A stretch of 64,000 bases of DNA from Lonsdalea britannica (GTDB lineage Bacteria; Pseudomonadota; Gammaproteobacteria; Enterobacterales; Enterobacteriaceae). Below, in pieces: positions 37,188 to 64,000 of the stretch. The stretch is taken from NCBI RefSeq assembly GCF_002111595.1, contig NZ_LUTN01000001.1:267569-331568 (forward strand), written 5' to 3'. Position numbers and translations under genes: made by a program. How positions within the stretch are numbered: position 1 is the stretch's first letter; every line of letters begins with the position of its first letter. A model generated the notes under the pieces. The model was given only the letters and a program-made list of their open reading frames with translations, was not told where the DNA came from and did no database searches.

Positions 37188-40100
37188 ATGTCTCTGAATA
37201 CAAATAATAGTGACTTGGCCAGGGTCATTGATGACGCTCGTCCGTTTGTTGTTGATTCTGCTGCTACGCTTATTTCTTTATTTAAACAACAAATGGAATA
37301 TGAACCCTTAGCTCCTGCCATCATATTCCGCCAGGAAATTGTGACCAGAATAAATCTCTGGCAACAAGCCGCATCAATGGCTCGTTATCTGATGGAAAAC
37401 GTTGACTGCAAAGACCAATGCGTGGGGTTGTTTGTTGAGCCATCCGTGTCACTAATAAGCGGGGCATGGGGCATTATGTTATCCGGTAATGGCTATTTGC
37501 CGCTGTCCCCCGAATATCCTAAGGAACGCTTGCGCTATATGCTGGAAGACAGCCGGGCGGCCGTCGTTTTTACCCAGGAGCACCTGCGTCCACAGCTTGC
37601 ACAATTAGCGCCGCCTGAGGTTCATATTTTTACCGAACAGGATGTGAAGAAATATTTGGCGCAATTGACTTCCTCAATAACAGCACGGGAGGAATATCCC
37701 TTATCACCAGATACGCTGGCTTACGTTATTTACACCTCAGGTAGTACAGGCAAACCGAAAGGCGTGATGATTGAGCAGCGTAGCATCGTCAATCAAATGC
37801 AATGGCTGGCCCGTGAATATCAGCTCAATGCACAAACGCGTATTCTGCAAAAAACGCCGATGAGTTTTGATGCGGCGCAATGGGAAATTCTCGCTCCGGC
37901 CTGCGGCTCCACCGTCATTATGGGAGAGCCAGGTATTTATAAAGACCCTCCGCGTCTCATCGCCACTATTCGCCGCTACCAGGTGACGGCCTTGCAATGC
38001 GTTCCCACCCTTTTAAAGGCTATTTTGGATGATGATGACATTCTGCAATGTGTCAGCCTTAAGCAGATTTTCAGCGGCGGTGAGGTACTGCATAAACGTT
38101 TGGCGATGCTCTGTCTTGAGACATTACCCCGTTGTCAGCTGGTGAATCTTTATGGGCCGACAGAATGTACGATTAATAGCTCGGCTCTGACCGTTAATAA
38201 AGAGGTGCTGGAAAAAGAATCAGACATGGTTTCGATCGGTCGTCCCATTGATAACATGCGCTACTCTATTTTGGATGAAACGTTGCGTCCGGTCGAGGCG
38301 GGAGAAACGGGGGAGCTGTATATCAGCGGGGTGGGATTAGCGCGGGGTTATTTGCACCGGCCTGAAATGACCCGAGAACGTTTCCTGCTCGATCCCTCTC
38401 AGACGGGAAACCGGTTGGCAAGGATGTATAAAACGGGCGATCTGGCTCGCTGGGGGGAGAATGGCACCGTTAGTTATTCTGGCCGTACTGACAACCAGAT
38501 TAAATTACGCGGCTACCGCATTGAGCTGGATGAGATACGCTCCGCCATTGAGAAACATGACTGGGTCAGAAACGCCGCCGTTATCGTCAAAAATGATCCT
38601 CACACGGGCTACCAGAATTTAATTAGTTTCGTCGAATTGAATAATAAAGAAGCCACGCTGATGGACCAAGGGAATGCGGAAAGTCATCATTATTCAAAGG
38701 CAAATAAGGCTCAGGTTTATATGCAACTCGCGAATACAGGATGTCGCGATGAAAACGAAAATGATTGGGTTATCAACCTACCGGGTTCTCAGGAAACGCC
38801 GCAGCAGCGGGCGATGGCGTTTGGCCGTAAAACTTATCGTCACTATGAAGGCGGAATTGTTAGCGAACAAGATCTTCGGAATATGCTTAGTGAACAGCCG
38901 CCATTAGGGCAGCCGGCGGAGCTTTCCACACTGTCATTGGCTTCTTTAGGAACGCTACTGCGCTACTTTGGGCGTTTTACGAGCGATGAACGTATTCTGC
39001 CGAAATATACCTGGTCCTCGCCGGGAGCATTATATGCAACCCAGCTTTATGTCGAACTGGTGGGTATCGCTAGTCTTGAGAAGGGGATTTATTATTATCA
39101 TCCAGTGAAACATCAGCTGGTATTTTGCTCTGAGACCTTAGTTGACGAATCACCTTTTTTCCGCTGCCACTTCATCGGCAAAAAAATGGCGATAGAACCT
39201 ATTTATAAAAACAATATTGAGGAGGTGCTCAATTTTGAGGCGGGGCACATGCAGGGCGTGCTGGACTATATTCTGCCGGGTTTTGGTTTTAGCATCGTTG
39301 CTCAACAGCCTTGTCCTGAAGTGAAGTTACACCTCGGCGCTGCGGATGAGGACTATTATCTGACCAGTTGTCGTATCGATAGCTATCGGCAGAATCCGCC
39401 ACTGCCGGTGGATATTCTGGTGCAGGCGATGTCGGATAAAGTTGCCGGGTTGGAGGCAGGTCTCTATCGCTATCAAAATAATACATTCCAATTAGTAAGC
39501 CGCCAGCTGGTGCAGAAAAAACACGTTATCGCGATTAACCAGAAAGTGTACGAAAACGCTTCCTTTGGTATTGCCCTGCTGAGTAGGGAACAAACGGGCT
39601 GGCAGAAATATGTCACCTTGGGGAGGCAAATGCAGCGCCTGATGAGTAATAACTGGCTAATGGGGCTAATGGGGCTAATGGCGTCAGGCTACAGCTCTGA
39701 AACCGGTAATGATTTGCCTTCCGCCATTGTATTAAAGAACATTCTCTCAATGCGGCGCGGAGCTTCCTATTTCTGTGTAGGCGGACGTATTACCGAACAG
39801 CAAAAACAAAGCGAGGGAATGAAAGAAGACATTGTTCATATGAAGGGGCCTGCGGAGATTTTGCGAGATGATCTAGTGCGTTTCCTGCCCATATATATGG
39901 TGCCAAATAAGATTATCGTGCTAGAGAAATTGCCGCAGACGGCAAACGGGAAAATTGATATTCAGAGTCTGTCCGCGCATAAGATTGAGCTTGCCCATAA
40001 GACGATTGTTTTACCTCGTACAGCATTAGAAAAACAAATTGCGGAGATATGGCAAACCTGCCTCAAACAACCGCAATACTCAATCGACGATAATTTTTTT

Positions 40101-41045
40101 GAAGCCGGTGGCAATTCGCTCATCGCCGTGGCTTTTTTGACACGCTTAAATAAATCGCTGAATTGTCATTTACCGGTTCAGGTGATTTTTACTGCGCCGA
40201 CCATCGAAAAACTGGCTCTGTATATTGTCGCCAGTTCATTAGACGCTGCTGATACTTCACGATTGATCCCTTTGCAGCCGCGGGGGCGCCAGAACCCGGT
40301 ATTCTGTTGGCCAGGTTTAGGCGGCTATTGCATGAACCTGAGAACGCTGGCTGTTACGCTTTCATCAACTCGGCCATTTTACGGCATTCAGGCCAGTGGT
40401 ATTAACGCTGGCGAAGCTATCTTCCCAACCATAAAAGAAATGGCGGAACGCGATATTCAGCTTATCAAACAAAAACAGCCGCAGGGGCCATATGTGCTTT
40501 GGGGATACTCATTTGGTGCGCGTGTGGCATTTGAAACCGCCTGGCAACTTGAATGTGCAGGCGAACAAGTGAAAGAGCTGATTCTAATCGCGCCGGGATC
40601 GCCAACAGTGCGTCAAGAATCAGCTGCACTTCATGCTTATGAAGCTAGTTTTACCAATCCAACTTACCTGACAATTTTGTTCTCGGTTTTTATGGGAAGC
40701 ATTCAGCATCCATTGCTGGAACAGTGCCTATTGCAGGTCACAACACGTGATGACTTTATTGATTTCATTGCCAGGCACCATGAAGCGCTAGTGTACGAGC
40801 AGATCGCACGTATAACGAATATTGTGGGGCAGACATTCGAGTTTACTTACAGCTTCCATGAACTCAATCAACGCAAAATAAAGGCGCCAGTGACCGTGAT
40901 AAAAGCACAGGGTGATGATTACTCATTTATCGAAGGCAGCGAATGCTTTTCTGTTGTCCCCCCCAACATAATCACCTTGAAAGCAGACCACTATCAGTTA
41001 CTGAAAGAGAGCCACATTGATGAACTGATGAGCGCCATTGGCTGA
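37188..41045 (+). CDS. indC: IndC, single-module NRPS indigoidine synthetase (A-Ox-A-T-TE)
   Basis: 1285 residues, matching the indigoidine synthetases BpsA/IndC (about 1280). Adenylation motifs: IYTSGSTGKPKGVMIEQ near 180, NLYGPTECTINSS near 322, YKTGDLARW near 415, GRTDNQIKLRGYRIELDEIR near 432. An FMN-dependent oxidase domain is inserted at about 525-880 between A-domain core motifs. The A-domain end NGKIDIQSL is near 925. The carrier site is in DNFFEAGGNSLIAV near 975, and the thioesterase has GYSFG near 1106 and a late DHYQLL histidine. The enzyme oxidises and cyclises two L-glutamines to the blue bipyridyl indigoidine. ATG 37188 has CGAGGAAG. A perfect 9-bp triplication (39657 region) encodes LMGLMGLMA in the Ox part. 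GC content is lower than in the flanking backbone. Confidence 0.95.
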   Translation: MSLNTNNSDLARVIDDARPFVVDSAATLISLFKQQMEYEPLAPAIIFRQEIVTRINLWQQAASMARYLMENVDCKDQCVGLFVEPSVSLISGAWGIMLSGNGYLPLSPEYPKERLRYMLEDSRAAVVFTQEHLRPQLAQLAPPEVHIFTEQDVKKYLAQLTSSITAREEYPLSPDTLAYVIYTSGSTGKPKGVMIEQRSIVNQMQWLAREYQLNAQTRILQKTPMSFDAAQWEILAPACGSTVIMGEPGIYKDPPRLIATIRRYQVTALQCVPTLLKAILDDDDILQCVSLKQIFSGGEVLHKRLAMLCLETLPRCQLVNLYGPTECTINSSALTVNKEVLEKESDMVSIGRPIDNMRYSILDETLRPVEAGETGELYISGVGLARGYLHRPEMTRERFLLDPSQTGNRLARMYKTGDLARWGENGTVSYSGRTDNQIKLRGYRIELDEIRSAIEKHDWVRNAAVIVKNDPHTGYQNLISFVELNNKEATLMDQGNAESHHYSKANKAQVYMQLANTGCRDENENDWVINLPGSQETPQQRAMAFGRKTYRHYEGGIVSEQDLRNMLSEQPPLGQPAELSTLSLASLGTLLRYFGRFTSDERILPKYTWSSPGALYATQLYVELVGIASLEKGIYYYHPVKHQLVFCSETLVDESPFFRCHFIGKKMAIEPIYKNNIEEVLNFEAGHMQGVLDYILPGFGFSIVAQQPCPEVKLHLGAADEDYYLTSCRIDSYRQNPPLPVDILVQAMSDKVAGLEAGLYRYQNNTFQLVSRQLVQKKHVIAINQKVYENASFGIALLSREQTGWQKYVTLGRQMQRLMSNNWLMGLMGLMASGYSSETGNDLPSAIVLKNILSMRRGASYFCVGGRITEQQKQSEGMKEDIVHMKGPAEILRDDLVRFLPIYMVPNKIIVLEKLPQTANGKIDIQSLSAHKIELAHKTIVLPRTALEKQIAEIWQTCLKQPQYSIDDNFFEAGGNSLIAVAFLTRLNKSLNCHLPVQVIFTAPTIEKLALYIVASSLDAADTSRLIPLQPRGRQNPVFCWPGLGGYCMNLRTLAVTLSSTRPFYGIQASGINAGEAIFPTIKEMAERDIQLIKQKQPQGPYVLWGYSFGARVAFETAWQLECAGEQVKELILIAPGSPTVRQESAALHAYEASFTNPTYLTILFSVFMGSIQHPLLEQCLLQVTTRDDFIDFIARHHEALVYEQIARITNIVGQTFEFTYSFHELNQRKIKAPVTVIKAQGDDYSFIEGSECFSVVPPNIITLKADHYQLLKESHIDELMSAIG

Positions 41046-45267: not shown

Positions 45268-45924
45268 TTGATTAGCGTTTTTCTTGTTGATGACCACGAA
45301 TTGGTGCGGGCAGGGATACGGCGCATTCTTGACGACATCAAAGGCCTCAAAGTGGTAGGCGAGGCCGCGTGTGGCGAGGATGCGGCCAAATGGTGCCGTA
45401 ACAATAGCGTGGACGTTGTCCTGATGGACATGAACATGCCGGGTATCGGCGGTCTGGAAGCAACACGCAAAATCGTGCGATTTTCTCCTGAAATAAAAGT
45501 CATCATGCTGACTATTTATACAGAGAGTCCTCTTCCCGCCAAAGTGATGCAGGCGGGTGCCGCAGGTTATCTGAGCAAGGGCGCGACGCCTCAGGAAGTG
45601 ATCTGCGCCATTCGCTCTGTGCACGCCGGGAAACGTTATATCGCATCTGACATCGCTCAGCAGATGGCGCTGAGTCAGTTGGCTCCGCAAACAAAAACTC
45701 CCCTGGAGTGCCTTTCCGACCGCGAATTACAGATTATGCTGATGATCACTAAGGGGCAGAAAGTGGTCGAGATTTCAGATAAACTGAACCTCAGTCCTAA
45801 AACGGTGAACAGTTATCGTTATCGAATGTTCAGTAAATTGAATATCAGCGGGGACGTGGAGTTGACCCACCTTGCCATCCGGCATGGTCTTTTTAATGCG
45901 GAGACGTTGACCAGTAGTGAGTGA
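45268..45924 (+). CDS. uvrY: Response regulator UvrY (GacA/ExpA)
   Basis: 218 residues from TTG 45268, with GGAGAA 7 bp upstream; this gives the N-terminus of E. coli UvrY, which also starts with TTG. Receiver domain: phospho-acceptor D54 in [14 protein letters not shown] in MLTIYTES and K in YLSKGATP. The LuxR-type HTH is [42 protein letters not shown]. It is the partner of BarA (GacS/ExpS); it activates csrB-type RNAs and in soft-rot bacteria controls exoenzymes and pigments. Overlaps uvrC by 8 bp. Confidence 0.96.
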
Positions 45925-47753
45925 AAGCTTTGATGCCCCGGCGTTCTTAAAAACGGTAACCAGCCAACCTGGGGTTTACCGTATGTATGATGCTGACGAT
46001 ACGGTTATTTATGTCGGTAAGGCGAAGGACCTGAAAAAGCGTCTCTCCAGCTACTTCCGTCGCAACGTAGGTAGCCGCAAAACAGAGGCGCTCGTCAAAT
46101 GCATTCATCAGATCGATGTGACCATCACGCATACCGAAACGGAAGCGCTGCTGCTAGAACATACCTACATCAAGCGTTACCAGCCTCGCTACAACGTGTT
46201 ATTACGCGATGATAAATCTTATCCGCTGATCTTCCTGAGCTCTGATAAACATCCCAGAATTTCCATTCATCGCGGCGCCAAGCATGCGAAGGGCGAATAT
46301 TTTGGGCCTTTCCCCAATGGGAATGCGGTACGCGAAACCTTGATGCTGCTGCAAAAGCTGTTTCCCATTCGTCAGTGCGAAGATAGCGTTTATCGCAATC
46401 GCTCCCGTCCGTGTCTGCAATATCAGATTGGTCGTTGTCTCGGCCCCTGCGTCTCCGGACTCGTCAGCGATGAAGAGTACCGTCAGCAGGTGGAATACGT
46501 CCGATTGTTCTTGCTGGGAAAAGACCAGCAGGTGCTGACGCGTCTAATCGCTCAGATGGAAGCCGCAAGCAAAACGCTGAACTTCGAAGAAGCGGCGCGG
46601 ATACGCGATCAAATTCAATCGGTACGCCGGGTAACGGAAAAACAGTTCGTTTCCGGCGCAGGAGATGGCGAAGATCTCGATGTCATCGGCGTTGCCTTCG
46701 ATGCGGGTCTGGCCTGCGTACATGTTTTGTTCGTTCGCCAGGGCAAGGTGCTGGGTAGCCGCAGTTACTTCCCCAAAATTCCGGGAGGCACGGAACTGGC
46801 TGAAGTCGTACAAACTTTCGTGGGGCAATTCTACTTGCAGGGAAGTCTTTCCCGGACGTTGCCTACCGAAATTTTGTTGGATTTTTCGTTGCCGGAACAA
46901 CAGCTTCTGACGGACTCATTAACCGAGATCGCAGGACGCAAAGTGCAGATCCAAAGCCGTCCTCGCGGCGACCGCGCTCGTTATCTCAAGCTGGCGCGAA
47001 CGAATGCCAATACCGCGCTGATCAGCAAACTGTCTCAGCAATCAACTATTCATCAGCGTTTGACGGCATTAGCCAATGTTTTGCAGCTGCCCGAAATCAA
47101 ACGCATGGAATGTTTCGACATCAGCCACACGATGGGGGAGCAGACGGTCGCATCCTGCGTGTCTTCGACGCAAACGGACCGCTTCGTTCCGAGTATCGGC
47201 GCTATAATATTACCGGGATCACCCCAGGCGATGATTACGCGGCGATGACTCAGGTGCTGAAACGGCGTTACGGCAAAGCGCTGGATGACAGTAAAATTCC
47301 GGATGTCATCGTGATTGATGGCGGGAAAGGGCAGTTGGGGCAGGCTAAAGCCGTTTTCGATGAACTCCAGGTTCCCTGGGATAAAACACAGCCGCTGCTT
47401 TTGGGCGTCGCGAAAGGGAGCGATCGAAAAGCCGGGCTGGAAACGCTGTTTTTTGAGGCGACGGGAGAGGCTTCGCCTTGCCGCCCGATTCGCCTGCGCT
47501 ACATGTCATTCAGCACATTCGCGATGATTCCCACGATCACGCCATCTCCGGTCATCGGAAGAAAAGAGCCAAGGTCAAAAATACCAGTAGCCTGGAACTG
47601 ATCGAGGGGGTGGGGCCGAAGCGTCGTCAAACGTTGCTTAAGTATATGGGCGGGCTGCAACCGCTTCAGAATGCCAGTATCGAAGAAATTGCTAATGTGC
47701 CGGGAATTTCTTCAGCTTTGGCAGAAAAAATTTACTATGCATTGAAACACTAG
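45917..47753 (+). pseudogene. uvrC: UvrC excinuclease subunit, two frameshifts as read
   Basis: Nucleotide-excision-repair nuclease. GTG 45917 overlaps uvrY. GIY-YIG domain ([25 protein letters not shown]), UVR motif near 205-240, RNase H-like C-terminal nuclease, and helix-hairpin-helix ([17 protein letters not shown]) are all present. The first frame leaves the family after GEQTVASCV (about 47160); the second ([19 protein letters not shown] ... FFEATGE) ends after about 47470, and the third ([19 protein letters not shown]) reaches the normal end ALKH at 47753. Restoring one G at each of the two places gives a full-length UvrC of about 610 residues. Loss in a strain with intact neighbours is possible but error is more likely. 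Confidence 0.93.
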
Positions 47754-51431: not shown

Positions 51432-53363
51432 ATGTTCAAAAAATTATTTCACCCCGAAAAAATTAATCAGTGCGTTATTCCGAACCGGCTCGTCGTTCCT
51501 GCCATGGTCACCAACCTGTGTAACAGCGATGGTACGGCATCAGACCGCTATATCGCCTATCACGAAGAAAAAGCAAAAGGCGGCTGGGGGCTGATCATCA
51601 CGGAGAACTACGCCATCAACGAAAATGCGATGGGCTGTAAATATATCGGTGGACTCTGGCGCGACGAGCAAATCGCCAGTCATCGAAAACTCACCGACAC
51701 CATCCATCAATACGACAGTAAAATCTTCTGCCAGATTTACCATGCGGGCCGCCAGACGTCAGAAAATGTGAACGGCGGTGTGCAGCCAGTGGCCCCTTCG
51801 GCAATCCCTTGCCCCGCGTTAAAAGAAATGCCTCGGGAACTGGGTATCGACGAAATTCAGCAGTTGGTTTCAGAATTTGCAGATTGCGCTCGCCGTGTGA
51901 AAGAGGCGGGCTTTGACGGTGTTGAAATTCATGCCGGTCATGGTTATCTGATTGCCGAATTTTTATCGCCTTATGCCAATAAGCGTACCGATAAATATGG
52001 CGGTAGCCTCGACGGCCGCATCCTGTTCTTAAAAGAGATTTATGAGGCGGTGCGTAAGGAAGTGGGCGCTGACTATCCTGTGACCATCCGACTTTCCGCT
52101 GACGAAGGTTTCCTGGGCGGGCGTGATATCGCCGAAACCCGCGTTTTGGCGCAGATCTTCGAAGAGTGGGGCGTGGATGCGCTGCACATGACTATGGGCG
52201 TTTATGGCGATCACAACAAGGCTTGTACTGTGCCGCCGATGTATGTGGGCCATGCCTGGGCCGTCTCTTTCTCCGAAGAGCTGAAAAAAACGGTGAGTAT
52301 GCCCATCATCACCGTGAACCGCATTAACGATCCGCGTATGGCGGACAACGTTTTGGCCTTGGGCAAAGCGGACTTTATCGCGATGGGACGTGGTTCGTTG
52401 GCCGACCCACATCTGCCCAACAAAGCGAAAGCGGGTGATGTCGCGTCTATTCGTTACTGCATCGGCTGCATGCAGGGTTGTCTGGCCAGTTTGCCGCTTG
52501 GCGTGCCGTTCACCTGTCTGGTCAACCCGTCGCTGGCGCGTGAAAGTAGCCTGGACTACAGCAAGGTCGATAGCCCTAAACGCGTCTTCATCGCGGGGGC
52601 GGGTCCGGCAGGGCTGGAAGCGGCCCGCGTGGCGGCGATGCGTGGTCACCGTGTGACGCTGTTTGAAAAAACCGGCTATCTGGGCGGTCAGTTCCGCTCT
52701 GCGGCTTTCCCTCCGGGTAAAGGCGAGCTGGCGACCTACACGGCCTGGCTGGGCCGGGAGCTGGAAAAACTGGGCGTGGAGATCAAGCTGAATACGCCGC
52801 TGACCAAAGCGATCGTGGCGGAAGGTCGCCCGGACTCCGTTATCGTCGCCACCGGGGGTAAACCGGCGGTTCCGCCGATTAAGGGCATCAATCAGCCGCA
52901 CGTAGTGCTGGCGGAAGATGTCCTGTTGGGCAATGTGGTGACCGGTCAGCGCGTGGTGATCGCGGGCGGCGGTGAAGTCGGTGGCGAAACCGCGGCACAT
53001 CTGGCCATGCAGCAGAAAGAGGTCACCGTGGTTGAAATGCGCGACCGCCTGTTGCAAGAGCTGGATGGCGTCAGCAAACTGCATCTGATGTCCGTACTGG
53101 AAGAGTATGACGTGAAGCAGTACCCCAACACCAAGCTGTGCGAAATTGGCGAGCATCAAGTGATCCTCGAAAATGCGCAAGGACGAATGGAGTTAGAAGC
53201 GGATACCGTCGTTATCGCACTGGGATACGCGCCGGTCAAAGAACTGGCTGAAGAGCTGGAAGGCGTTGCCGACGATGCGATCGTCATCGGTGGCGCCGTG
53301 AAAACCAGCAATGCGCTGGTGGCTGCGCGTGAAGGTTTTGACGCGGGTATGTGTCTGGCCTAA
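51432..53363 (+). CDS. Enoate reductase-type flavoprotein (OYE barrel + 4Fe-4S + FAD domain)
   Basis: 643 residues, 2,4-dienoyl-CoA reductase/2-enoate reductase/BaiCD type. FMN barrel at 1-360: NRLVVPAMVTNLCNSDG, QIYHAGRQTS near 99, the HAGHGYLIAEFLSPYANKRTDKYGG stretch near 175, VGMGRGSLADP-like AMGRGSLADP. The 4Fe-4S cysteines are in CIGCMQGCL near 343 and the next Cys in FTCLVNP. FAD/NAD domain from about 375: IAGAGPAGLEAARVA and VIAGGGEVGGETAAHLA. It reduces activated double bonds with NADH. It lies in the island, divergent from nothing, and convergent with the GH31 gene. The substrate could be an enone made from 1,5-anhydrofructose (speculative). Confidence 0.9.
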   Translation: MFKKLFHPEKINQCVIPNRLVVPAMVTNLCNSDGTASDRYIAYHEEKAKGGWGLIITENYAINENAMGCKYIGGLWRDEQIASHRKLTDTIHQYDSKIFCQIYHAGRQTSENVNGGVQPVAPSAIPCPALKEMPRELGIDEIQQLVSEFADCARRVKEAGFDGVEIHAGHGYLIAEFLSPYANKRTDKYGGSLDGRILFLKEIYEAVRKEVGADYPVTIRLSADEGFLGGRDIAETRVLAQIFEEWGVDALHMTMGVYGDHNKACTVPPMYVGHAWAVSFSEELKKTVSMPIITVNRINDPRMADNVLALGKADFIAMGRGSLADPHLPNKAKAGDVASIRYCIGCMQGCLASLPLGVPFTCLVNPSLARESSLDYSKVDSPKRVFIAGAGPAGLEAARVAAMRGHRVTLFEKTGYLGGQFRSAAFPPGKGELATYTAWLGRELEKLGVEIKLNTPLTKAIVAEGRPDSVIVATGGKPAVPPIKGINQPHVVLAEDVLLGNVVTGQRVVIAGGGEVGGETAAHLAMQQKEVTVVEMRDRLLQELDGVSKLHLMSVLEEYDVKQYPNTKLCEIGEHQVILENAQGRMELEADTVVIALGYAPVKELAEELEGVADDAIVIGGAVKTSNALVAAREGFDAGMCLA

Positions 53364-53409
53364 TCATGCTTTAGCGCCATTAATCCTCGGCGCTTGACCG
53401 TCTTATCAA

Positions 53410-53439
53410 CGGGCTTTCCATGCAAAATGGAAGGCCCGT
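53410..53439 (+). terminator. Terminator after the enoate reductase gene
   Basis: CGGGCTTTCCAT pairs with ATGGAAGGCCCG across GCAAA (one mismatch), followed by a moderately T-rich tail. Confidence 0.65.
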
Positions 53440-53614
53440 ATTGTTATCTGTGGTTGGTCTTTACGCTCCACGATTTGCTTTTCTTGGTTTCTTGTCGGCG
53501 CTGACTTTCGTGGAAACCGAACAATGCGGCAGGTATATCTCTGCTGTATGACAGGATAATGAAACAGGACTCAGGAAGAGAAATGGGGTGGGGCGTTGGC
53601 TGGTGGAAGGCGGT

Positions 53615-53650
53615 AAAAAATCACGGACAGGCGGAAAGCCTGCCCGTGAT
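53615..53650 (-). terminator. Terminator after the GH31 gene
   Basis: ATCACGG-A-CAGGC and GCCTG-C-CCGTGAT form a long stem with one mismatch; on the minus strand it is followed by TTTTTT. It lies 14 bp behind the GH31 stop codon. Confidence 0.8.
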
Positions 53651-53663
53651 GAGGTCGAATGCG

Positions 53664-56600
53664 TTATGACACGATATTCATCGTCAACGCGTGGGTTGCG
53701 GATAGCGTGCGGGTGCTGACTTTAATCCAGACGCTGCCGCGTGGGTCAACATAAGCCGCCTCTCCCTCGTGTTTGAAGAGTGCGTCCGTCGAATCTACGC
53801 GAGTGCTGAGGGTAGACGAGCCGACCGTCAGCCGTTGCAACGCAGGTTTGTCCGTGCGCAGGCGCAGGTAGACAAATGCGTGCAGCGGGTAATCGTACTT
53901 GCGCGGTGTCAGGCTAACCTCCAGCGAACCGTCGATTCGACGTTGGCGAACATCGATCACCGAGAACTGTCCCTGACGTTCTGCTGAACGGGTGACGCCG
54001 CCATCGTCCCAGTAAAGTTGATGGTCGCCTTCGTCAGATTCGCCGAGGGGATAGAGCGCGAGCACCAGCGGCTGCTCGAACTTATCCATCACCTGAATAT
54101 TCTTGAACGGCGCAGGGAGATCAGACTGCGTGTGGCGTTCAGGGATAATTGCGCCTTCACGAATAAACAGCGGCACGTTGGTGATGTCTGCGCTGACGGT
54201 ACGGCGCTGGCCCCCTTTAATGGGATTGGCGATATCCACGGTGTCTTCGATGACATGGTAACGATACCAGTTCAGCGTCTGCCCTTTGACCGCATTAGGG
54301 AAGTAAATGTCCTTTTCCGCCACGTAGGCGGCTTCGCTCCCGGCGATGCTGCGCGTCATGATTGGGGCATAAAGCACGGAGCTGTCGATGAAGCACTGTG
54401 TCGCCAGTACGTCCTTGTTGCATTTATCGAAGATCGCGTCGTCGCCCTGCCACAAACACATCGCCTGCAAGATCGGAATACCGGTCTGGGTATTCTGATA
54501 CATAGCGTCATACAGCAGGTGATGCCAGCGTACGCGGAAGCAGACGAAGGCCGTCATGATATCGGCGAAGGAACGATCGCTGCTGCCCGGCACCTTCTCG
54601 TCGTAGCGATAAATTTCCTGATAAGGTTTCATCGCATCGTAATGGTTGCGCATCCACGGCAACAGGCACGCCGCCTGAACCCAACGGGTCATCAGCTCGT
54701 GCTCGCAGATGTCGCCGATGTCGATGTCATCGGGACCCAGCACCAGCCGGTCATACACCATGGGATTGTGATTGCGGCAGTGCTGAGCGCCGAAGAAAAT
54801 ACTGCTGGGATCTTCTGGCGCTTCACCCGGCGCAAATCCGCCAACGTCGGAACCGGAGATGGGCAGCCCGGACATCCCCAGGTTAAGCACCATCGGCAGG
54901 GTGGCCTGCAGGTGATGCCAGGTGGAGGCGTTATCGCCCACCCAGTGACCTGCATAGTGCTGGAGGCCGGGGTAGCCGCTGCGACAGATGATATAGCTGC
55001 GTTTGTACCCCTTGAGCATATCTTCGTGTGCGCTGAGTCCGTACTCGTAGCTGGACTTCGCCAGCATGTAGGCATGGAAGTTGCGCAGCTCGACGTACGG
55101 CGTTTTACGACCATCGCCGAAACGGGGATCCGTCAGATGCGCCTGACCGTGGTAGCTACGCCAGTTGAAAGTATTGGTTCTTCTTCTGTCGTCATCGGGC
55201 GATTCCCCGGTGAGCGACCAGCCGAATTGGTTACGCGGCGCTTCCGTATCCGCGAAATTTTTACCGTCTTCAACGTGAGGCATGGAGTCGGGCGCCGGCA
55301 TATCCTGCCAGATGAATCCAAGCCCATTTTTGAGCAGATAGGCATATTGGTCACCCCAAAAACGCGCGGCGTCCGGGTTGCCGTAGTCGGTGACAACGGC
55401 GCCGATCATATCGCGTTCCGACGTTTGCGCATTGATGCCGTAATCCAGCACCAACAGGTTCTGGTCGGGATAGTTAACCTCGCCGATACGGGTGTAAGTC
55501 AGACCAGGATAATCGCTTTCACGTTTCGGCCCCCGGAATTTGGGAATGTTGGCTTCACCCTCGTTAGCGACGCAGTAGCCTTTCTCAATCAGTCCCTGAG
55601 CGGTGACATACTGTTTTTTCGCTTTATCGGCTGGGTTATAGGCGACTTTGTCCGCGCGGATAAACGGTGTGATATTAGTTTGGCATTGCAGATTGAACTG
55701 GGCCGCCCAGTCGAATACCGAGATCCCTTCGTCGACCTTGCCTTTCGTCCAGAAGCTATCCTTGATGGTGAAGACCTTTTTGTCTTCCTGGATATCGATA
55801 TCGATCCCCAGGCCTTCAATCGGAATACCGGATTTTTTATGCCCTTTGACGATGTCCTCCACATACACCTTGATGGGATCGTTGACATCATCCGGGCGCA
55901 GCAGGCCGGGACTACCGTATTTGGCCTGAAAATAACCAAAGATGTATTTGGGCGGCATGACCGCGCGGTCATTCAACGTCACGTCTTTTGCCGCCGGCGC
56001 ATTCAGTTCGCCTTTCCCCATCAGGTAGGTGAAGGCATCCATTACTCCCGCCCCCTGTTCCGCGAACATATAATGGCAGTCGAATTCGCCGTGCTGAACG
56101 CCAGCTTCTACCGCATTTTTGTCGCGAGACGGGTTTTTGAGGGAGAAGTAGCTCTGGCCGGTATTATCCAGGAACACGCCAAGAAACTGCTGGTGGCCCT
56201 CCACCACGGCGCGCTCGATATAAAAAGGCGCGTTCAGATAAAGCGGGATGCTGGCGTTGGCTTTGAACGCGTCTTTGTACTTCGTCTTATTTGAGAAGAC
56301 TTCCGGTTGGTTGTACCAGAGGTTGTCGTAGTTGTAGCAGGTGATCTGCGAGCCGGTGTGATCCAGCAGCGAATAGCCGCTGTAGCTATAGCAATCCTCA
56401 ACAGCGTGCCCGACGGTCGCATGGCTTTTGCCGGTCAGATTGTAATTAACTATCTCGCCCAGACCGAAGTAGTGAGTCGCCGCCTCGGCTTTACGCTTCA
56501 TGTTGGCGACGGTGCCCACGCCGGGTTTGGCATGGCAGAGCGGGCCGGATGAAATGTCAGTGATGGCGCCATCAGACAGGCGTTTGATCTGGATCGACAG

Positions 56601-57065
56601 GAGGTCGTTGTTGTCACGTAAGAACTGAATCTGGATAGATTTCAGTTGGATGCTCACGCCATCGCGATTCCAGCGCAGCAGCGGGTGGTATCCGGCCGTC
56701 TGCTCGTGTCGACGTATCTGATCCAGCCGTTCTACTATGATCGGTCCATAGACTTTGTTCGGGTAGTCGTCGATGCTCTCGGCGGAAGGGGAAAACCGAA
56801 CCCGGAAGGCATCTTTCTCACAAGATGTGACCTGCAATACGAGATACACGTCCCGCTCGGCGGTCGCCGCGCCGGATTTCGGTTTGGCCTTGGCATTGAT
56901 ATAAATCGTCCAGTCCGCGTCGAAACCGTTGGGGGAATGGGGTTTGCCATCCCAGTAGACTGAATAAAGCTCAATGTCGTCGCCAACGGACCAATCGTCC
57001 ACGGGGACATAGTCATAGGTGTTATAAGCACGCCACGACGTGGGAAGTTCTCTGTTTTTCATCAT
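53664..57065 (-). CDS. GH31 protein resembling alpha-1,4-glucan lyase
   Basis: 1133 residues, much longer than bacterial alpha-glucosidases and close to red-algal/fungal alpha-1,4-glucan lyases (about 1030-1090). No signal peptide. GH31 elements: substrate loop GLGIDIDIQED near 430, nucleophile region GLGFIWQDMPAPDSMPH (Asp near 588), acid/base-region HWVGDNASTWHHLQ near 710 and LNLGMSGLPISGSDVGGF. GH31 hydrolases normally have WxDMNE; here the motif is WQDM-P-A-P without the Glu, as I remember it for glucan lyases (WQDMT-P). Such lyases release 1,5-anhydrofructose from starch or glycogen instead of glucose. AAGGA precedes ATG 57065; the gene follows a Tat-exported protein by 21 bp and is ended by a strong terminator. 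Lyase activity is inferred, not proven. Confidence 0.8.
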   Translation of the reverse strand: MMKNRELPTSWRAYNTYDYVPVDDWSVGDDIELYSVYWDGKPHSPNGFDADWTIYINAKAKPKSGAATAERDVYLVLQVTSCEKDAFRVRFSPSAESIDDYPNKVYGPIIVERLDQIRRHEQTAGYHPLLRWNRDGVSIQLKSIQIQFLRDNNDLLSIQIKRLSDGAITDISSGPLCHAKPGVGTVANMKRKAEAATHYFGLGEIVNYNLTGKSHATVGHAVEDCYSYSGYSLLDHTGSQITCYNYDNLWYNQPEVFSNKTKYKDAFKANASIPLYLNAPFYIERAVVEGHQQFLGVFLDNTGQSYFSLKNPSRDKNAVEAGVQHGEFDCHYMFAEQGAGVMDAFTYLMGKGELNAPAAKDVTLNDRAVMPPKYIFGYFQAKYGSPGLLRPDDVNDPIKVYVEDIVKGHKKSGIPIEGLGIDIDIQEDKKVFTIKDSFWTKGKVDEGISVFDWAAQFNLQCQTNITPFIRADKVAYNPADKAKKQYVTAQGLIEKGYCVANEGEANIPKFRGPKRESDYPGLTYTRIGEVNYPDQNLLVLDYGINAQTSERDMIGAVVTDYGNPDAARFWGDQYAYLLKNGLGFIWQDMPAPDSMPHVEDGKNFADTEAPRNQFGWSLTGESPDDDRRRTNTFNWRSYHGQAHLTDPRFGDGRKTPYVELRNFHAYMLAKSSYEYGLSAHEDMLKGYKRSYIICRSGYPGLQHYAGHWVGDNASTWHHLQATLPMVLNLGMSGLPISGSDVGGFAPGEAPEDPSSIFFGAQHCRNHNPMVYDRLVLGPDDIDIGDICEHELMTRWVQAACLLPWMRNHYDAMKPYQEIYRYDEKVPGSSDRSFADIMTAFVCFRVRWHHLLYDAMYQNTQTGIPILQAMCLWQGDDAIFDKCNKDVLATQCFIDSSVLYAPIMTRSIAGSEAAYVAEKDIYFPNAVKGQTLNWYRYHVIEDTVDIANPIKGGQRRTVSADITNVPLFIREGAIIPERHTQSDLPAPFKNIQVMDKFEQPLVLALYPLGESDEGDHQLYWDDGGVTRSAERQGQFSVIDVRQRRIDGSLEVSLTPRKYDYPLHAFVYLRLRTDKPALQRLTVGSSTLSTRVDSTDALFKHEGEAAYVDPRGSVWIKVSTRTLSATHALTMNIVS

Positions 57066-57086
57066 TACGCTGTCCTTGATAGTCGA

Positions 57087-58319
57087 TTAGTGCTTGTCTG
57101 CTGAACGGTGAAATTCAAAGGCAATCCACACGCTATCGGTGTCGGCGTAATACTGATGGGGCGGGTAGAAGAAGCAGGGATCGTCCATGCTGGCATTTTT
57201 AGCGATGTCCGACACGCCTTTCCAGGCGTCGTATTCCGTGACGATCGGCATCGGCAGATGCGTGTTCCCGGGCGCGAGTCTAAATTCTTCGTAGAGTTCA
57301 GGGAAGGCTTTACCTGTATCAAACGGCGATGCAACGCCGCCTTCCGGCAGTACGGCCCGTTTGCCGGCAATCGCGGCACGGGCTTTGTCGATGTCGGTGA
57401 ACTTCTGCATACGGCCACAGCCAATCAGTTGGGTATGGACCTCGAACAGATTGCTGCCATGCGCCGCGTGGATCCCAGCATCGGAACCGGCCGGCAGCCA
57501 CCACAGATTGACATACAGTTCGTAAGGCAACGCCTTGCTGCCCGCAGGCGCAGGTAAACCGGTCAATTGCCACGGATTCACCTGGATTTTGTGGTTCAGA
57601 TGAAGCTGATTAGAGATCCACAGCGGAAGCGCAGGGGTGCCGGCTGGGAAAGCGTATTTCGCCCACTGGGTATCGCGTGAAAAAATATCCGATTCGACAT
57701 TGCGCGTATTGCGGACCTGGATCAGCGAGATGACCCCGTTTGCAGAGGCGTCAGCCGTCGTGATGACCGCTCCTGCACGGATGATGATGCTTTGTAGCGA
57801 GGGAACGGCATGACGCAGCGGGGTGTCATGATGCAAATCGCTGTTGACGTGCGCTGTCGCAGCGACATAGACCGGCTGAGTGCCCAGATTGGTAAGAATG
57901 ACGTCGGTGTTATCTTGATGGGCGAAAAGCCCGGCGGTGTCGAATTCGTGCAGCTGACTGACCATTACGCCGAACAGTAGTCCGCCGTTGAAAGGGTATT
58001 CCGTCACCACATTTTCGGCAGCGCGAGGCGTAATAGTGACGGTTTTCGGCGCCGCGGGGTTCGCGCCGGGAGCCAATGTCGGATCGGCGGCGACACAGGA
58101 GGACGCTATCACGCCAGGAGGGCATTTTCCCGGTGCGGTGGCATTCGCTACGGCCTCTTTCGCCATCGTCTTATGCGCGGTGCCGGCCAGTGCAACCGTT
58201 CCGGCGGCGACGCAGCTACCATACAGCAGGAATTTACGCCTGGAAAGCGTACGTTGTTTCTCCTCCTGTTGAGATAAAGGGCATGCCTCTGCCGATGTCT
58301 TCTTCATCTGAGTTTTCAT
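57087..58319 (-). CDS. Tat-exported protein of unknown function, co-operonic with the GH31 gene
   Basis: 410 residues from ATG 58319 behind GAGGTC. After a 25-residue leader the twin-arginine motif SRRKFLL and a hydrophobic stretch (YGSCVAAGTVALAGTAHKT) predict folded export through Tat. The mature part has two beta-rich regions; the second (SNLFEVHTQLIGCGRMQKF ... FRLAPGNTHLPMPIV ... PPHQYYADTDSVWIAFEFHR) has His/Glu spacing reminiscent of a cupin. I do not recognise the family. Export of a folded, perhaps metal-containing protein beside a glucan-lyase-like enzyme suggests a role in processing the lyase product. Alternative: a structural or binding protein. Confidence 0.7.
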   Translation of the reverse strand: MKTQMKKTSAEACPLSQQEEKQRTLSRRKFLLYGSCVAAGTVALAGTAHKTMAKEAVANATAPGKCPPGVIASSCVAADPTLAPGANPAAPKTVTITPRAAENVVTEYPFNGGLLFGVMVSQLHEFDTAGLFAHQDNTDVILTNLGTQPVYVAATAHVNSDLHHDTPLRHAVPSLQSIIIRAGAVITTADASANGVISLIQVRNTRNVESDIFSRDTQWAKYAFPAGTPALPLWISNQLHLNHKIQVNPWQLTGLPAPAGSKALPYELYVNLWWLPAGSDAGIHAAHGSNLFEVHTQLIGCGRMQKFTDIDKARAAIAGKRAVLPEGGVASPFDTGKAFPELYEEFRLAPGNTHLPMPIVTEYDAWKGVSDIAKNASMDDPCFFYPPHQYYADTDSVWIAFEFHRSADKH

Positions 58320-59893: not shown

Positions 59894-59967
59894 GGCGCGT
59901 TGGCAGAGTGGCCATGCAGCGGATTGCAAATCCGCCTACCTCGGTTCGACTCCGGGACGCGCCTCCA
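59894..59967 (+). tRNA. cysT: tRNA-Cys (GCA), cysT
   Basis: 74 nt with encoded CCA. Acceptor GGCGCGT/ACGCGCC, anticodon loop TTGCAAA (GCA). Followed after 6 bp by tRNA-Leu. Separated from glyW by the accessory region, so it needs its own promoter; none is obvious just upstream. Confidence 0.97.
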
Positions 59968-59973
59968 GTTTTG

Positions 59974-60060
59974 GCCCAGGTGGTGGAATCGGTAGACACA
60001 AGGGATTTAAAATCCCTCGGCGTTCGCGCTGTGCGGGTTCAAGTCCCGCCCTGGGCACCA
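59974..60060 (+). tRNA. leuZ: tRNA-Leu (TAA), leuZ
   Basis: 87 nt with long variable arm (CGGCGTTCGCGCTGTG) and encoded CCA. Acceptor GCCCAGG/CCTGGGC, anticodon loop TTTAAAA (TAA). leuZ is a common prophage/island integration site, and P2-like remnants lie just downstream. Confidence 0.97.
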
Positions 60061-60107
60061 TTGAATAAAACCCATAATAATCAATCTCCTAGCAAAAAGT
60101 CATCGGC

Positions 60108-60130
60108 CGCCCTATGGCGGTTTTTTTGTG
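60108..60130 (+). terminator. Terminator after tRNA-Leu
   Basis: CCGCC-CTAT-GGCGG followed by TTTTTTT; ends the cysT-leuZ transcript. Confidence 0.8.
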
Positions 60131-60248
60131 TCTGTAATAAATCTCAATAGCGAAAAGTGGCGACAGGTATTTTTTGAGCGCGCATTATTTCGTCTTCGAA
60201 TAAGAAAAATAAACCGCGACAGGAAATTCTTTTATTCTGTGGTGCTGG

Positions 60249-60467
60249 TTAAATATTCAATGTGCTCTGATTTCCGCCTTTGGTATGTACGGGCACGGTA
60301 TTTACACTTGCAGGAATCGCAATGGAGCGAATAAAGGTCTCCATCGTAATAAAGGTATGGCCGCAATTGATATTCGTGCATTGGTTGTAGCGCTCTTTCG
60401 TCTGCGGCGTAATTTCCTGACTGGAACGGGTGTGGGCTGCGCATCCACACAGCGGGCATTTCATCAT
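60249..60467 (-). CDS. P2 Ogr/Delta-type zinc-finger activator
   Basis: 72 residues. MMKCPLCGCAAHTRSS and CTNINCGHTF provide the four zinc-binding cysteines of the Ogr/Delta family, the late-gene activators of P2-like phages. It lies at the tRNA-Leu end of a phage remnant, as ogr lies at one end of P2 genomes. The C-terminal 25 residues are unlike the phage proteins I remember. Confidence 0.85.
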   Translation of the reverse strand: MMKCPLCGCAAHTRSSQEITPQTKERYNQCTNINCGHTFITMETFIRSIAIPASVNTVPVHTKGGNQSTLNI

Positions 60468-61564: not shown

Positions 61565-62256
61565 TTAATCGCAGGTGGGGTCTTGGGTACCATTCGGGGT
61601 GATATCTACAATAGAGTTCTGATTTTTCTCACATGTGAGATTATAAGAGTTGCTAAACCAAAAACGCATAATACCGCGCAGCCCCTTGATATTAACATTA
61701 TGAAAAGAAGCGAAGCTACTGATCCGATAATCGGTAATGTCTAGGTAATGTTCGTCGGGGCCTGTGGGCGACTGATCCCACCAATGCGTTAACGGAATTT
61801 CACCGCTTATCGGTGTATCCACGCTACGTCGATAAAAACTTGCATAGTATCGATCTTCTTTTTTATCAAAGGGATGTTGTTCAAAATACTTCATTATCAA
61901 GTCAATCAAAGCCTGCTGCCCTTGAGGTGGATTGACGACGACAAAGCGTTCATCCTGACTTGGATAGATGGCCGCTGCCCCAAAGGTAAACTTCGCGGAA
62001 ATGTCACCAATATAATTGATCCATACCGTCATGAAGACATGAAGACATGAAGCGCCAGCGTGCTGCCAATGTAAATCCATTTCCGCCGGAAGCGACGGCG
62101 TAGAAATACGATGATGCATATTGGGGCGATAAGCCAGATCAGCGGCAAAATGGTGGAGTAATACGTCCACAGAAACGTGCTGTCGTCGAACTGGAATAAA
62201 CGGCCAATAATTAGCAATAAATAATTAATTATTAGTAAAATAAGCGTGAATTTCAT
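61565..62256 (-). pseudogene. Membrane protein, putative immunity, copy A, broken by an 8-bp duplication
   Basis: Paralogue of the gene at 62269-62952. The N-terminal frame from ATG 62256 has the membrane segments LILLIINYLLLIIGRLFQFD and LIWLIAPICIIVFLRRRFRRKWIYIG. It then leaves frame at the tandem ATGAAGAC duplication (62031-62046), and the rest (VWINYIGDISAKFTFGAAA ... HWWDQSPTGPDEHYLD ... GTQDPTCD) follows in another frame. Without the extra 8 bp it would be a ~228-residue protein like its neighbour. Confidence 0.75.
62031..62046. repeat. 8-bp tandem duplication ATGAAGAC inside copy A
   Basis: ATGAAGAC occurs twice in direct succession, followed by ATGAAG. The paralogous copy B has a single unit at this place. 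The extra 8 bp shifts the reading frame. Confidence 0.85.
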
Positions 62257-62268
62257 AGCGTAATAGGG

Positions 62269-62952
62269 CTAATCACAGGTGGGGTCTTGGGTGCCATTTG
62301 ATTGAATATCGACAATGTTAAATTCGTTTTTTTCGCAGCTATAATAATAGTCGCCATCAAACCAAATTCTCATAGTCCCAGGTAGTTCGCTTGTGTTGTG
62401 GCTATTAAAAGAAGCGAAAGCTGCCATTCTATAATCAATGGTGTCTAAGTTATCCTCATAAGGTCCAGTGGGTGATTGATCCCACCAATGCGCTAATGGA
62501 ATTTTACCGCTAATGGGGGTATCCACGCTGCGGCGATAAAAACTGGCGTAATATCGATCCTCTTTTTTGTCAAAGGGATGTCGCTCAAAATAGCTCATGA
62601 TCAAGTTAATTAGAGCCTGCTGCCCATGAGGAGGATTAACAACAATAAAGCGACCATTCTGGCCTGGATAAATGGTAGTTGTCCCGAAGGTAAACTTTGC
62701 GGAAATGTCACCAATATAATTGATCCATACTGTCATAAAGACATGAAGCGCCAGCGTGCTGCCAATGTAAATCCATTTCTGCCGGAAGCGACGGCACAGA
62801 AATACGATGATGCATATTGGGGCGATAAGCCAGATCAGCGGCAACATGGTGGAATAGTGCATCCATAGGAATGTACTGTTGTCGAACTGATATAAACGTC
62901 CAATGATGAGCAATAAATAATTCATCACCAGAAAGGCAAAGGTTAACTTCAT
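62269..62952 (-). CDS. Membrane protein, putative immunity, copy B (intact)
   Basis: 227 residues. Three hydrophobic segments at the N-terminus (FAFLVMNYLLLIIGRLY; MLPLIWLIAPICIIVFL; IYIGSTLALHVFMTVWINYIG) and a soluble ~150-residue domain with FVVNPPHGQQALINLIM-like and HWWDQSPTGPYEDN motifs. No family recognised. It sits 37 bp after a putative toxin/effector gene in the same direction, in tandem with a close paralogue, which is the usual arrangement of duplicated immunity genes; the function is inferred from that only. Confidence 0.7.
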   Translation of the reverse strand: MKLTFAFLVMNYLLLIIGRLYQFDNSTFLWMHYSTMLPLIWLIAPICIIVFLCRRFRQKWIYIGSTLALHVFMTVWINYIGDISAKFTFGTTTIYPGQNGRFIVVNPPHGQQALINLIMSYFERHPFDKKEDRYYASFYRRSVDTPISGKIPLAHWWDQSPTGPYEDNLDTIDYRMAAFASFNSHNTSELPGTMRIWFDGDYYYSCEKNEFNIVDIQSNGTQDPTCD

Positions 62953-62989
62953 AGCTCTCCCTTAATGGAGTAATCCATTTCCATCACGG

Positions 62990-64000
62990 TTATAAAGGCT
63001 TATATCCAAAACGGTCCAAGTGTTGCAAAATAAACCAGGACCGAAATCCGCCTAATACACTATAAGATTTTATTGAACCATTCGACGGGTCAGGACCGAT
63101 ATCTGGAATATCCAAGCCGAAATGGTCGTAAAACGTTACGTGTACCTTTCCTTTATAGAAACGCCCACAACGATCGAATTCGACGATCTCCGCTTTAGCA
63201 CCCCATACATCGTTAACCGTGATTGTCAGACCACCATTCCACCATCCCAGCCATTTGTCTTTTGTGGTATTGAATGCAGGAGGAAGAAGAGGTCTTTCGT
63301 TGTTTTTATCATCGATATAAACATATTTATCCATCCAATCAACCAGTTGCAGCGAGTTTATTTCACCATTGCTTTGCTTAATCGCTTTTTTCATGCCATC
63401 CAGTAATAGAGTCATAAACTTCTGTGTTTTCGGATGTGCGCGAGCGGCCTGGGTTAAGGCCGGATGCCTAAACTCGCCCCCTTCATTTTTTTCAAATTTG
63501 GCAATCATTGCGAGAATAACGTTTCTCAGATCCCCGGAAGAGAACAACGTTGCCGCCATCACCCTAAATTTTATAAAGTTGATGGTCGGTGAATCGAAGC
63601 CAAATAAATAACCGTCTTTTACGAAGAGAGGTAAATGGCCAAAGTTAGGTATGGCTCTGATTTCTTCTTCGGTCATATCGCCATAGGTCATATCCGCAGC
63701 CGGGCTGCCATCAGCGTTAAAACCGGGTTTACGCGGCGACTGATATACCAAAACGGGGACATGGATACGCGTCGCACTGGTGGTATCGGTCATTTCGGTG
63801 ACTTTAAGCGTCGGCTCGGGTTCGGTTCGCGGTATGGCCGGGCGAGGCGCAAACCCCCAGCCCGCTTTTTGCGCCGGGGCGTTGACCTTGGCGCGGGCGT
63901 AGGCGTTTTGGACGGTGTTGGAAAAGTTTCGGTTGGCGTTGATGTCTAACGTGCCCGCATTTAACGAACAACAGGCGTGTTCCTTCGAGCCTAATACGAC
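62990..64000 (-). CDS. DUF3289-like putative effector, N-terminus beyond window
   Basis: The minus-strand frame is open from the right window edge to the stop at 62990 (about 336 residues visible), so the ATG at 63793 is probably internal. The visible N-terminal part (LGSKEHACCSLNAGTLDINANR-like, then AGWGFAPRPAIPR) looks like a linker or PAAR-adjacent region. The C-terminal ~250 residues show YGDMTEEEIRAIPNF, FRHPALTQAAR and the ending FYDHFGLDIPDIGPDP ... YSVLGGFRSWFILQH, typical of DUF3289 proteins, which occur in type VI/Rhs effector loci. The tandem membrane proteins downstream would be the immunity genes. Family call from memory; effector role inferred. Confidence 0.68.
   Translation of the reverse strand, partial: VVLGSKEHACCSLNAGTLDINANRNFSNTVQNAYARAKVNAPAQKAGWGFAPRPAIPRTEPEPTLKVTEMTDTTSATRIHVPVLVYQSPRKPGFNADGSPAADMTYGDMTEEEIRAIPNFGHLPLFVKDGYLFGFDSPTINFIKFRVMAATLFSSGDLRNVILAMIAKFEKNEGGEFRHPALTQAARAHPKTQKFMTLLLDGMKKAIKQSNGEINSLQLVDWMDKYVYIDDKNNERPLLPPAFNTTKDKWLGWWNGGLTITVNDVWGAKAEIVEFDRCGRFYKGKVHVTFYDHFGLDIPDIGPDPSNGSIKSYSVLGGFRSWFILQHLDRFGYKPL

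What the first reader, a model, noticed from the sequence alone, without database searches (positions are those of the whole stretch)
51432..58319. Possible bacterial anhydrofructose pathway: glucan lyase-like GH31, Tat-exported partner and enoate reductase
The 1133-residue GH31 protein has WQDM followed by P-A-P where hydrolases have N-E, and lyase-like length, suggesting alpha-1,4-glucan lyase (product 1,5-anhydro-D-fructose). A Tat-exported, cupin-like unknown protein is in the same operon, and an enone-reducing flavoprotein converges on it. Anhydrofructose dehydrates to enones (ascopyrones), so lyase, processing protein and enoate reductase would form a coherent pathway, rarely if ever described in enterobacteria. 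This is the strongest candidate for a new system in the window.
Basis: inference. Interest (0 to 1): 0.75.

Follow-up and report, generated by a model that had tools for sequence, protein, structure and literature searches.

The report
Bacterial anhydrofructose pathway operon
A two-gene operon in the bacterium Lonsdalea is predicted to break starch-like sugar chains into 1,5-anhydrofructose and then, likely outside the cytoplasm, to turn that sugar into ascopyrone- or microthecin-type compounds, a route best known from fungi and red algae.

The parts
57087..58319 (-). Tat-exported AUDH-type two-cupin protein (410 aa), first gene of the operon
58224..58244 (-). Twin-arginine motif SRRKFLL in the signal region
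   Evidence: sequence; SRR, DRR or GRR in 17 of 23 aligned relatives incl. the window; absent from P0034 (starts later) and the five short cupins L089-L093
53664..57065 (-). GH31 alpha-1,4-glucan lyase-type protein (1133 aa), second gene of the operon; no signal peptide apparent by eye
55668..55682 (-). QTNIT: N464 = lyase N459 (Ile/Val/Met in aligned hydrolase-type rows)
   Evidence: role from PMC12441222 section 12
55290..55310 (-). WQDMPAP: D588 = nucleophile D553; A591 = lyase V556, Glu in hydrolases
54933..54935 (-). D711 in WVGDN = lyase D665 (acid in the first step; role recalled)
57066..57086 (-). 21-bp Tat-GH31 spacer with AAGGA, ribosome-binding-site-like
   Evidence: sequence
53620..53650 (-). 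Terminator-like hairpin after GH31 (13 pairs, then T run)
   Evidence: consensus match only
53409..53439 (+). Terminator-like hairpin after the flavoprotein (13 pairs)
   Evidence: consensus match only
51432..53363 (+). OYE/FadH/BaiCD-type flavoprotein with an RYCIGCMQGC motif (iron-sulphur type, recalled), convergent neighbour; role in the pathway uncertain

Best explanation
This operon likely encodes a bacterial anhydrofructose pathway: a predicted cytosolic GH31 alpha-1,4-glucan lyase would release 1,5-anhydro-D-fructose from alpha-1,4-glucan, and a Tat-motif protein predicted to have the two-cupin fold of aldos-2-ulose dehydratase (AUDH) would, likely outside the cytoplasm, dehydrate or isomerise it to an ascopyrone M/microthecin-type enone. 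Shown by calls or sequence: operon layout, closeness of the GH31 protein to the algal lyase, its diagnostic residues, the Tat motif, and repeated neighbourhood of lyase-signature GH31 genes with AUDH-type genes. Predicted: the AUDH-cupin fold. Inferred: lyase activity, the cytosolic place of the lyase, export, metal binding and chemistry of the cupin protein, and how the sugar reaches it. In Lonsdalea the glucan is probably maltodextrin made or reshaped by MalQ or taken up, since no GlgA, full GlgC or GlgP/MalP was found in 5 of 5 genomes while GH77 (MalQ) was. Guessed: the flavoprotein reduces the enone, as detoxification or further metabolism.
Against: No activity data. The Lonsdalea motif is WQDMPAP, not the WQDMTVP of the algal enzyme and of 12 of the 16 closest relatives. 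The lyase shows no export signal by eye while its partner has a Tat motif, so the sugar would have to cross the membrane. Fungal AUDH is recalled to need zinc sites in both propeller and cupin; no propeller was found in 7 genomes, but that search had no positive genome. Sequence links between Tat and AUDH stay under thresholds: AUDH_Cupin 13.9 bits against 25; 5 of 16 cupins scanned gave no hit at all; no AUDH hit in PDB searches. Foldseek's E-value puts AUDH 12th for the better model, behind seed globulins and other bicupins, though with query TM 0.49 against 0.26 or less. Related cupins occur in rhizobia with no GH31 in the stretch opened. 19 of 29 lyase-signature loci show no AUDH-type gene in the DNA held, and the ten that do are not independent: six are cyanobacteria. 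In one Rhizobium plasmid (L088) the end of the GH31 gene lies in another frame.
Confidence: 0.72

Rival explanations
1. The GH31 enzyme is a lyase, but the Tat protein acts on something else, for example an oxidised 2-keto sugar or a periplasmic glycan, and anhydrofructose is simply a carbon source.
For: Related cupins with no GH31 in view lie near GMC oxidoreductases and sugar ABC transporter genes in 4 of 4 alphaproteobacterial plasmid loci of distant homologues opened. The compartments differ. The AUDH propeller was not found (no positive control).
Against: Tat sits directly before the lyase gene in Lonsdalea, G091 and Rhizobium. AUDH-type genes cluster with lyase-signature GH31 across phyla. 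AUDH itself acts on both glucosone and anhydrofructose (recalled), so the GMC loci fit too.
Confidence: 0.18
2. The full three-gene pathway as first proposed: the flavoprotein reduces the ascopyrone/microthecin enone, as self-protection or catabolism.
For: Close flavoprotein homologues (E <= 1e-150) in 7 of 392 family genomes, six of them the GH31 carriers. Order kept in Lonsdalea and G091 while most flanking genes differ.
Against: Five of the six carriers are one genus. Separate convergent unit with its own terminator-like hairpin. No match near the Rhizobium pairs. G243 has it without Tat. Its family reduces many enones (recalled; relatives).
Confidence: 0.3
3. The GH31 protein is an ordinary alpha-glucosidase or transglucosidase with a changed loop.
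For: GH31 Pfam domains; by the review, GH31 glycosidases make anhydrofructose as a minor side product (PMC12441222), so traces of it alone would not prove a lyase.
Against: Closer to the lyase than to any PDB hydrolase by about 370 bits; in the lyase clade; lacks the hydrolase Glu and has the lyase Asn.
Confidence: 0.07
4. Both genes are decayed or without function.
For: Patchy occurrence: GH31 in 6 of 392 family genomes; end of the gene out of frame on one Rhizobium plasmid.
Against: GH31 open in 5 of 5 Lonsdalea genomes, the other four at 91-94% protein identity with no internal stops; active-site residues kept.
Confidence: 0.03

Closest known systems
alpha-1,4-glucan lyase (EC 4.2.2.13) of red algae and fungi, PDB 2x2h
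   Same: GH31 family, best PDB sequence match, N459/D553/D665 equivalents, no Glu at 556, similar size (chain 1027, here 1133 residues)
   Different: Bacterial; T555-V556 replaced by P-A in Lonsdalea; in an operon with a Tat-motif partner
Aldos-2-ulose dehydratase/isomerase (AUDH), PDB 4a7k/4a7y/4a7z (Phanerochaete chrysosporium, from a reference in PMC8023676)
   Same: Its two-cupin part, residues 441-733, is the best structural match over nearly the whole mature protein
   Different: No propeller (or lectin, recalled) domain in the 410-aa protein; Tat motif; 17% identity in the structural alignment; under the Pfam cut-off
Split AUDH in bacteria (cupin and propeller as separate genes), e.g. 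L013, L019, L021, L090
   Same: Homologous cupin; in L013, L019 and L021 beside a lyase-signature GH31
   Different: Those cupins lack the Tat extension and have a propeller neighbour; no report of them came up in our search listings
BaiCD / 2,4-dienoyl-CoA reductase / NCR-type flavoproteins
   Same: Domain layout of the convergent neighbour
   Different: Below the NCBIfam cut-offs of the 25 families shown; substrate unknown
1,5-anhydrofructose use in Sinorhizobium morelense (reductase to anhydromannitol; PMC12441222 passage)
   Same: Bacterial handling of the same sugar
   Different: Starts from supplied sugar by reduction; no lyase or AUDH-type step in the passage

Membership tests
alpha-1,4-glucan lyase (GH31) | Closest characterised sequence relative is a lyase rather than a hydrolase | tested here: met
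   446.6 against 75.1 bits in the PDB; tree, 100/100
alpha-1,4-glucan lyase (GH31) | Nucleophile Asp (D553) and Asn (N459) kept | tested here: met
   D588 and N464; criterion from PMC12441222 section 12
alpha-1,4-glucan lyase (GH31) | Hydrolase Asn-Glu after WxDM absent | tested here: met
   WQDMPAP
alpha-1,4-glucan lyase (GH31) | Releases 1,5-anhydrofructose, not glucose | not testable with these tools
   needs an enzyme assay
AUDH | Double-cupin fold of AUDH | tested here: met
AUDH | Propeller and cupins in one polypeptide | tested here: not met
   410-aa protein aligns only to AUDH 441-733
AUDH | Pfam AUDH_Cupin above cut-off | tested here: not met
   13.9 bits against 25
AUDH | AUDH propeller encoded elsewhere in the genome | tested here: inconclusive
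   0 of 7 genomes, no positive control
AUDH | Metal-dependent conversion of anhydrofructose or ascopyrone M | not testable with these tools
   H283, H286, E292, H294 (counted from the residue after Met) invariant in 23 aligned sequences, spacing varies; ligand role inferred
OYE/2-enoate reductase-type flavoprotein | Oxidored_FMN plus Pyr_redox domains | tested here: met
   281.4 and 96.7 bits
BaiCD | Score above the NCBIfam cut-off | tested here: not met
   534.6 against 825 bits

The most novel reading that the evidence does not exclude
Bacteria of several phyla make microthecin/ascopyrone-type reactive sugars from alpha-glucan with a GH31 glucan lyase and a gene-split AUDH. In Lonsdalea and its kin the reactive step has been moved outside the cytoplasm by Tat export of a stand-alone AUDH cupin, so that the antimicrobial enone forms outside while a cytosolic enoate reductase guards the cell. 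A polysaccharide-fed chemical weapon of this kind is not reported for bacteria in anything our searches listed.
Probability: 0.3. Interest if true: 0.86.

Novelty: new variant of a known kind. Interest (0 to 1): 0.72.

Why it matters
The anhydrofructose pathway is a third, non-hydrolytic and non-phosphorolytic way to break alpha-glucans. A 2025 review names fungi and red algae as examples of lyase holders and, in the parts read, no bacterium (PMC12441222). A bacterial operon that pairs the lyase with an AUDH-type enzyme would make the pathway genetically testable in bacteria, give a likely function to a Tat protein without a curated family match, offer small stand-alone forms of an enzyme known as a chain of about 900 residues, and suggest that tree-canker bacteria form antimicrobial sugar derivatives.

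Tried and rejected
Ordinary alpha-glucosidase: rejected on residues, bits and tree. Direct sequence proof that the Tat protein is AUDH: sought by phmmer and profile searches of the PDB and not obtained; only weak Pfam hits. Foldseek with the better model ranks globulins and other bicupins above AUDH by E-value; judged by TM-score and Z instead. Endogenous glycogen as substrate: unlikely for Lonsdalea. Their partial GlgC hits (E 9.4e-8 to 1.0e-6) are taken as other nucleotidyltransferases, by inference. GlgB was not searched. E. coli carriers: no DNA match. Phylum sample for Tat: 3 of 398 genomes, the window's own and two short distant cupins. Named plasmids with the lyase at E <= 1e-60: 2 records of 72,556.

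Papers: Claesson 2012, Rozeboom 2013, Arumapperuma 2023 and Okuyama 2016 are not held; statements on what AUDH converts, its zinc sites, its lectin domain, its glucosone use and the D665 role are recalled. The statement that no bacterial lyase-AUDH pair is in print rests on search listings alone in an open-licence library. Passages seen: PMC12441222 (plus all of section 12), PMC6003095, PMC11650716, PMC8023676, PMC9061262, PMC6780248, PMC12903740, PMC7914447, PMC10916295, PMC4795551. PMC6003095 mentions enzymes for degrading 1,5-anhydrofructose in a marine Opitutae genome, so bacterial use of the sugar is not new.

Full report
OBSERVATION. The window belongs to a Lonsdalea genome. G004, 'same genus' as the window's genome, has a 245,953-bp contig of the same length as the L. 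quercina NCCB 100490 contig found independently, with the gene at the matching place (L002). Tat (57087-58319) and GH31 (53664-57065) share the minus strand with a 21-bp spacer. The flavoprotein (51432-53363) converges on them, and each side has its own terminator-like hairpin (consensus matches only). The Tat protein has SRRKFLLYG. The GH31 protein begins MMKNRELPTSWRAYNTYDY, with no signal peptide visible by eye; no predictor was run.

GH31. Pfam gives only GH31 domains and DUF5110, and NCBIfam nothing above cut-off. Against all PDB sequences the alpha-1,4-glucan lyase 2x2h stands alone at 1.6e-132; the next, maltase-glucoamylase, is at 2.4e-20. Close relatives (57-91% identity) are named from Lonsdalea, Brenneria, Affinibrenneria, Celeribacter, Rhizobium, Neorhizobium and Sinorhizobium. 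In a 48-row tree the window protein and 2x2h lie in a 19-row clade with 100/100 support. A second, 20-row clade (92/95) with rows from many phyla is its sister, and nine NEP-type proteins form the outgroup.

DIAGNOSTIC RESIDUES. A review states that lyases use D553 as nucleophile and base, aided by N459, which is Ile in hydrolases (PMC12441222 section 12). The aligned window residues are D588 and N464. The residue that is Glu in hydrolases is A591, and D711 takes the place of D665. Of the 110 rows aligned, 56 have the Asn and no Asn-Glu, 53 have Asn-Glu with Ile (49), Met (3) or Val (1) at the Asn place, and one, P0021 (STIVT with WQDMMCP), has neither. Of the 16 closest relatives 12 read WQDMTVP like the algal enzyme, two rhizobial ones WQDMAVP, one Neorhizobium WQDMPDP and one, Lonsdalea, WQDMPAP like the window.

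INDEPENDENT TEST. Twenty-nine carry the lyase signature and 51 the hydrolase NE. With Tat-family cupins and the Streptomyces AUDH-type pair as queries, 10 of 29 lyase-signature loci hold an AUDH-type cupin and/or propeller gene: L002, L012, L013, L016, L017, L018, L019, L021, L022 and L064 (propeller only). None of the 51 others does (Fisher p 1.2e-5). The other 19 lyase-signature loci, L003 among them, showed none in the DNA held, several of them short. The ten come from Enterobacterales, Cyanobacteriota (six), Gastranaerophilales, Paenibacillus and Acidobacteriota, so the p-value overstates independence; L002 is close kin of the window. Three of these propellers were tested and score 146-209 bits with Pfam AUDH_beta_propeller. 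In two Nostoc loci (L017, L018) only the cupin was seen beside GH31, as in Lonsdalea. In Streptomyces L090 the cupin homologue lies next to a protein matching the AUDH propeller at E 1.4e-76; no GH31 is annotated in that stretch.

OPERON CONSERVATION. Tat stands directly before GH31 in 5 of 5 Lonsdalea genomes (own included), in G091 and on two Rhizobium plasmids typed as conjugative; on one of these (L088) the last part of GH31 is in another frame. In the protein search, five Tat/GH31 pairs share the same longest-contig length (204007, 16915, 3094708, 29916 and 21387 bases). GH31 is rare in the family: 6 of 392 genomes at E <= 1e-100.

FLAVOPROTEIN. OYE-type FMN and NAD(P)-binding domains, nearest to NCR and dienoyl-CoA reductase in the PDB and to BaiCD in NCBIfam. 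Close homologues (E <= 1e-150) in 7 of 392 family genomes, six of them the GH31 carriers; Fisher p 1.4e-12 if the two samples are the same genomes, but five carriers are one genus. Gene order is kept in G091 while the other Lonsdalea flank genes tested gave no match there apart from a weak AMP-binding one. G243 has it alone (75% identity), with no Tat match in the genome and no Tat or GH31 in the 20 kb around it. No OYE match in the two Rhizobium loci. A pathway role is possible, not shown.

SUBSTRATE. Lonsdalea genomes, 5 of 5, show no GlgA and no GlgP/MalP match and only weak partial hits to GlgC. G091 and G243 are positive in the same searches. GH77 (MalQ) and LamB-type porins are present in all seven; three or four GH13 matches per Lonsdalea genome. 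Cytosolic maltodextrin from MalQ, or imported dextrin, is therefore a more likely substrate than glycogen in this genus (inference).

MECHANISM. Likely: the lyase cuts alpha-1,4-glucan from the non-reducing end by elimination and gives 1,5-anhydrofructose in the cytosol; the sugar leaves the cytoplasm by an unknown route; the cupin protein, probably metal-dependent, dehydrates or isomerises it to ascopyrone M and/or microthecin. [quoted passage not shown] Which of the two AUDH reactions the stand-alone cupin would do is open.

KNOWN OR NEW. Glucan lyase and AUDH are known enzymes; the pathway is known from fungi and algae. New here, as far as the listed searches go, are the bacterial operon, the stand-alone Tat-motif cupin, and the cross-phylum pairing with split AUDH genes. 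Filed as a new variant of a known kind. The GH31 protein meets every lyase test that was run. The Tat protein is not filed as AUDH, because the one-polypeptide propeller and the Pfam cut-off were tested and not met; it is said to work like the AUDH cupin part.

Noticed in passing
L012, L013, L016, L019, L021, L022: Cyanobacterial, Paenibacillus and Gastranaerophilales loci carry a lyase-signature GH31 with separate AUDH-type cupin and propeller genes: a wider gene set not met in our paper searches.
   Followed up: partly
L089, L091, L092, L093: Short stand-alone AUDH-type cupins on Ensifer, Paracoccus, Rhizobium and Thalassospira plasmids, each locus with a GMC oxidoreductase and sugar ABC transporter genes, three with an annotated aspartate ammonia-lyase; a glucosone-type substrate is conceivable.
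   Followed up: no
G000-G004: Lonsdalea seems to lack GlgA, GlgC and GlgP/MalP but keeps GH77 (MalQ).
   Followed up: partly
P0021: GH31 protein with hydrolase-like Ile at the lyase Asn place but WQDMMCP at the loop: an intermediate signature.
   Followed up: no
61565-63793: DUF3289 gene followed by paralogous small genes, one apparently frame-disrupted; the number of copies differs among Lonsdalea loci (L002, L094, L096).
   Followed up: no
59894-60467: tRNA-Cys and tRNA-Leu next to an Ogr/Delta-like zinc finger ORF: possible phage remnant at a tRNA site.
   Followed up: no
45917-47601: uvrC-like gene appears in two overlapping frames (443 and 163 aa ORFs; gene name by eye); sequencing error or real break not decided.
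   Followed up: no
37188-41045: 1285-aa AMP-binding, carrier and thioesterase protein (NRPS-like) in the same window, 47.7% G+C against 53.4% for the window.
   Followed up: no
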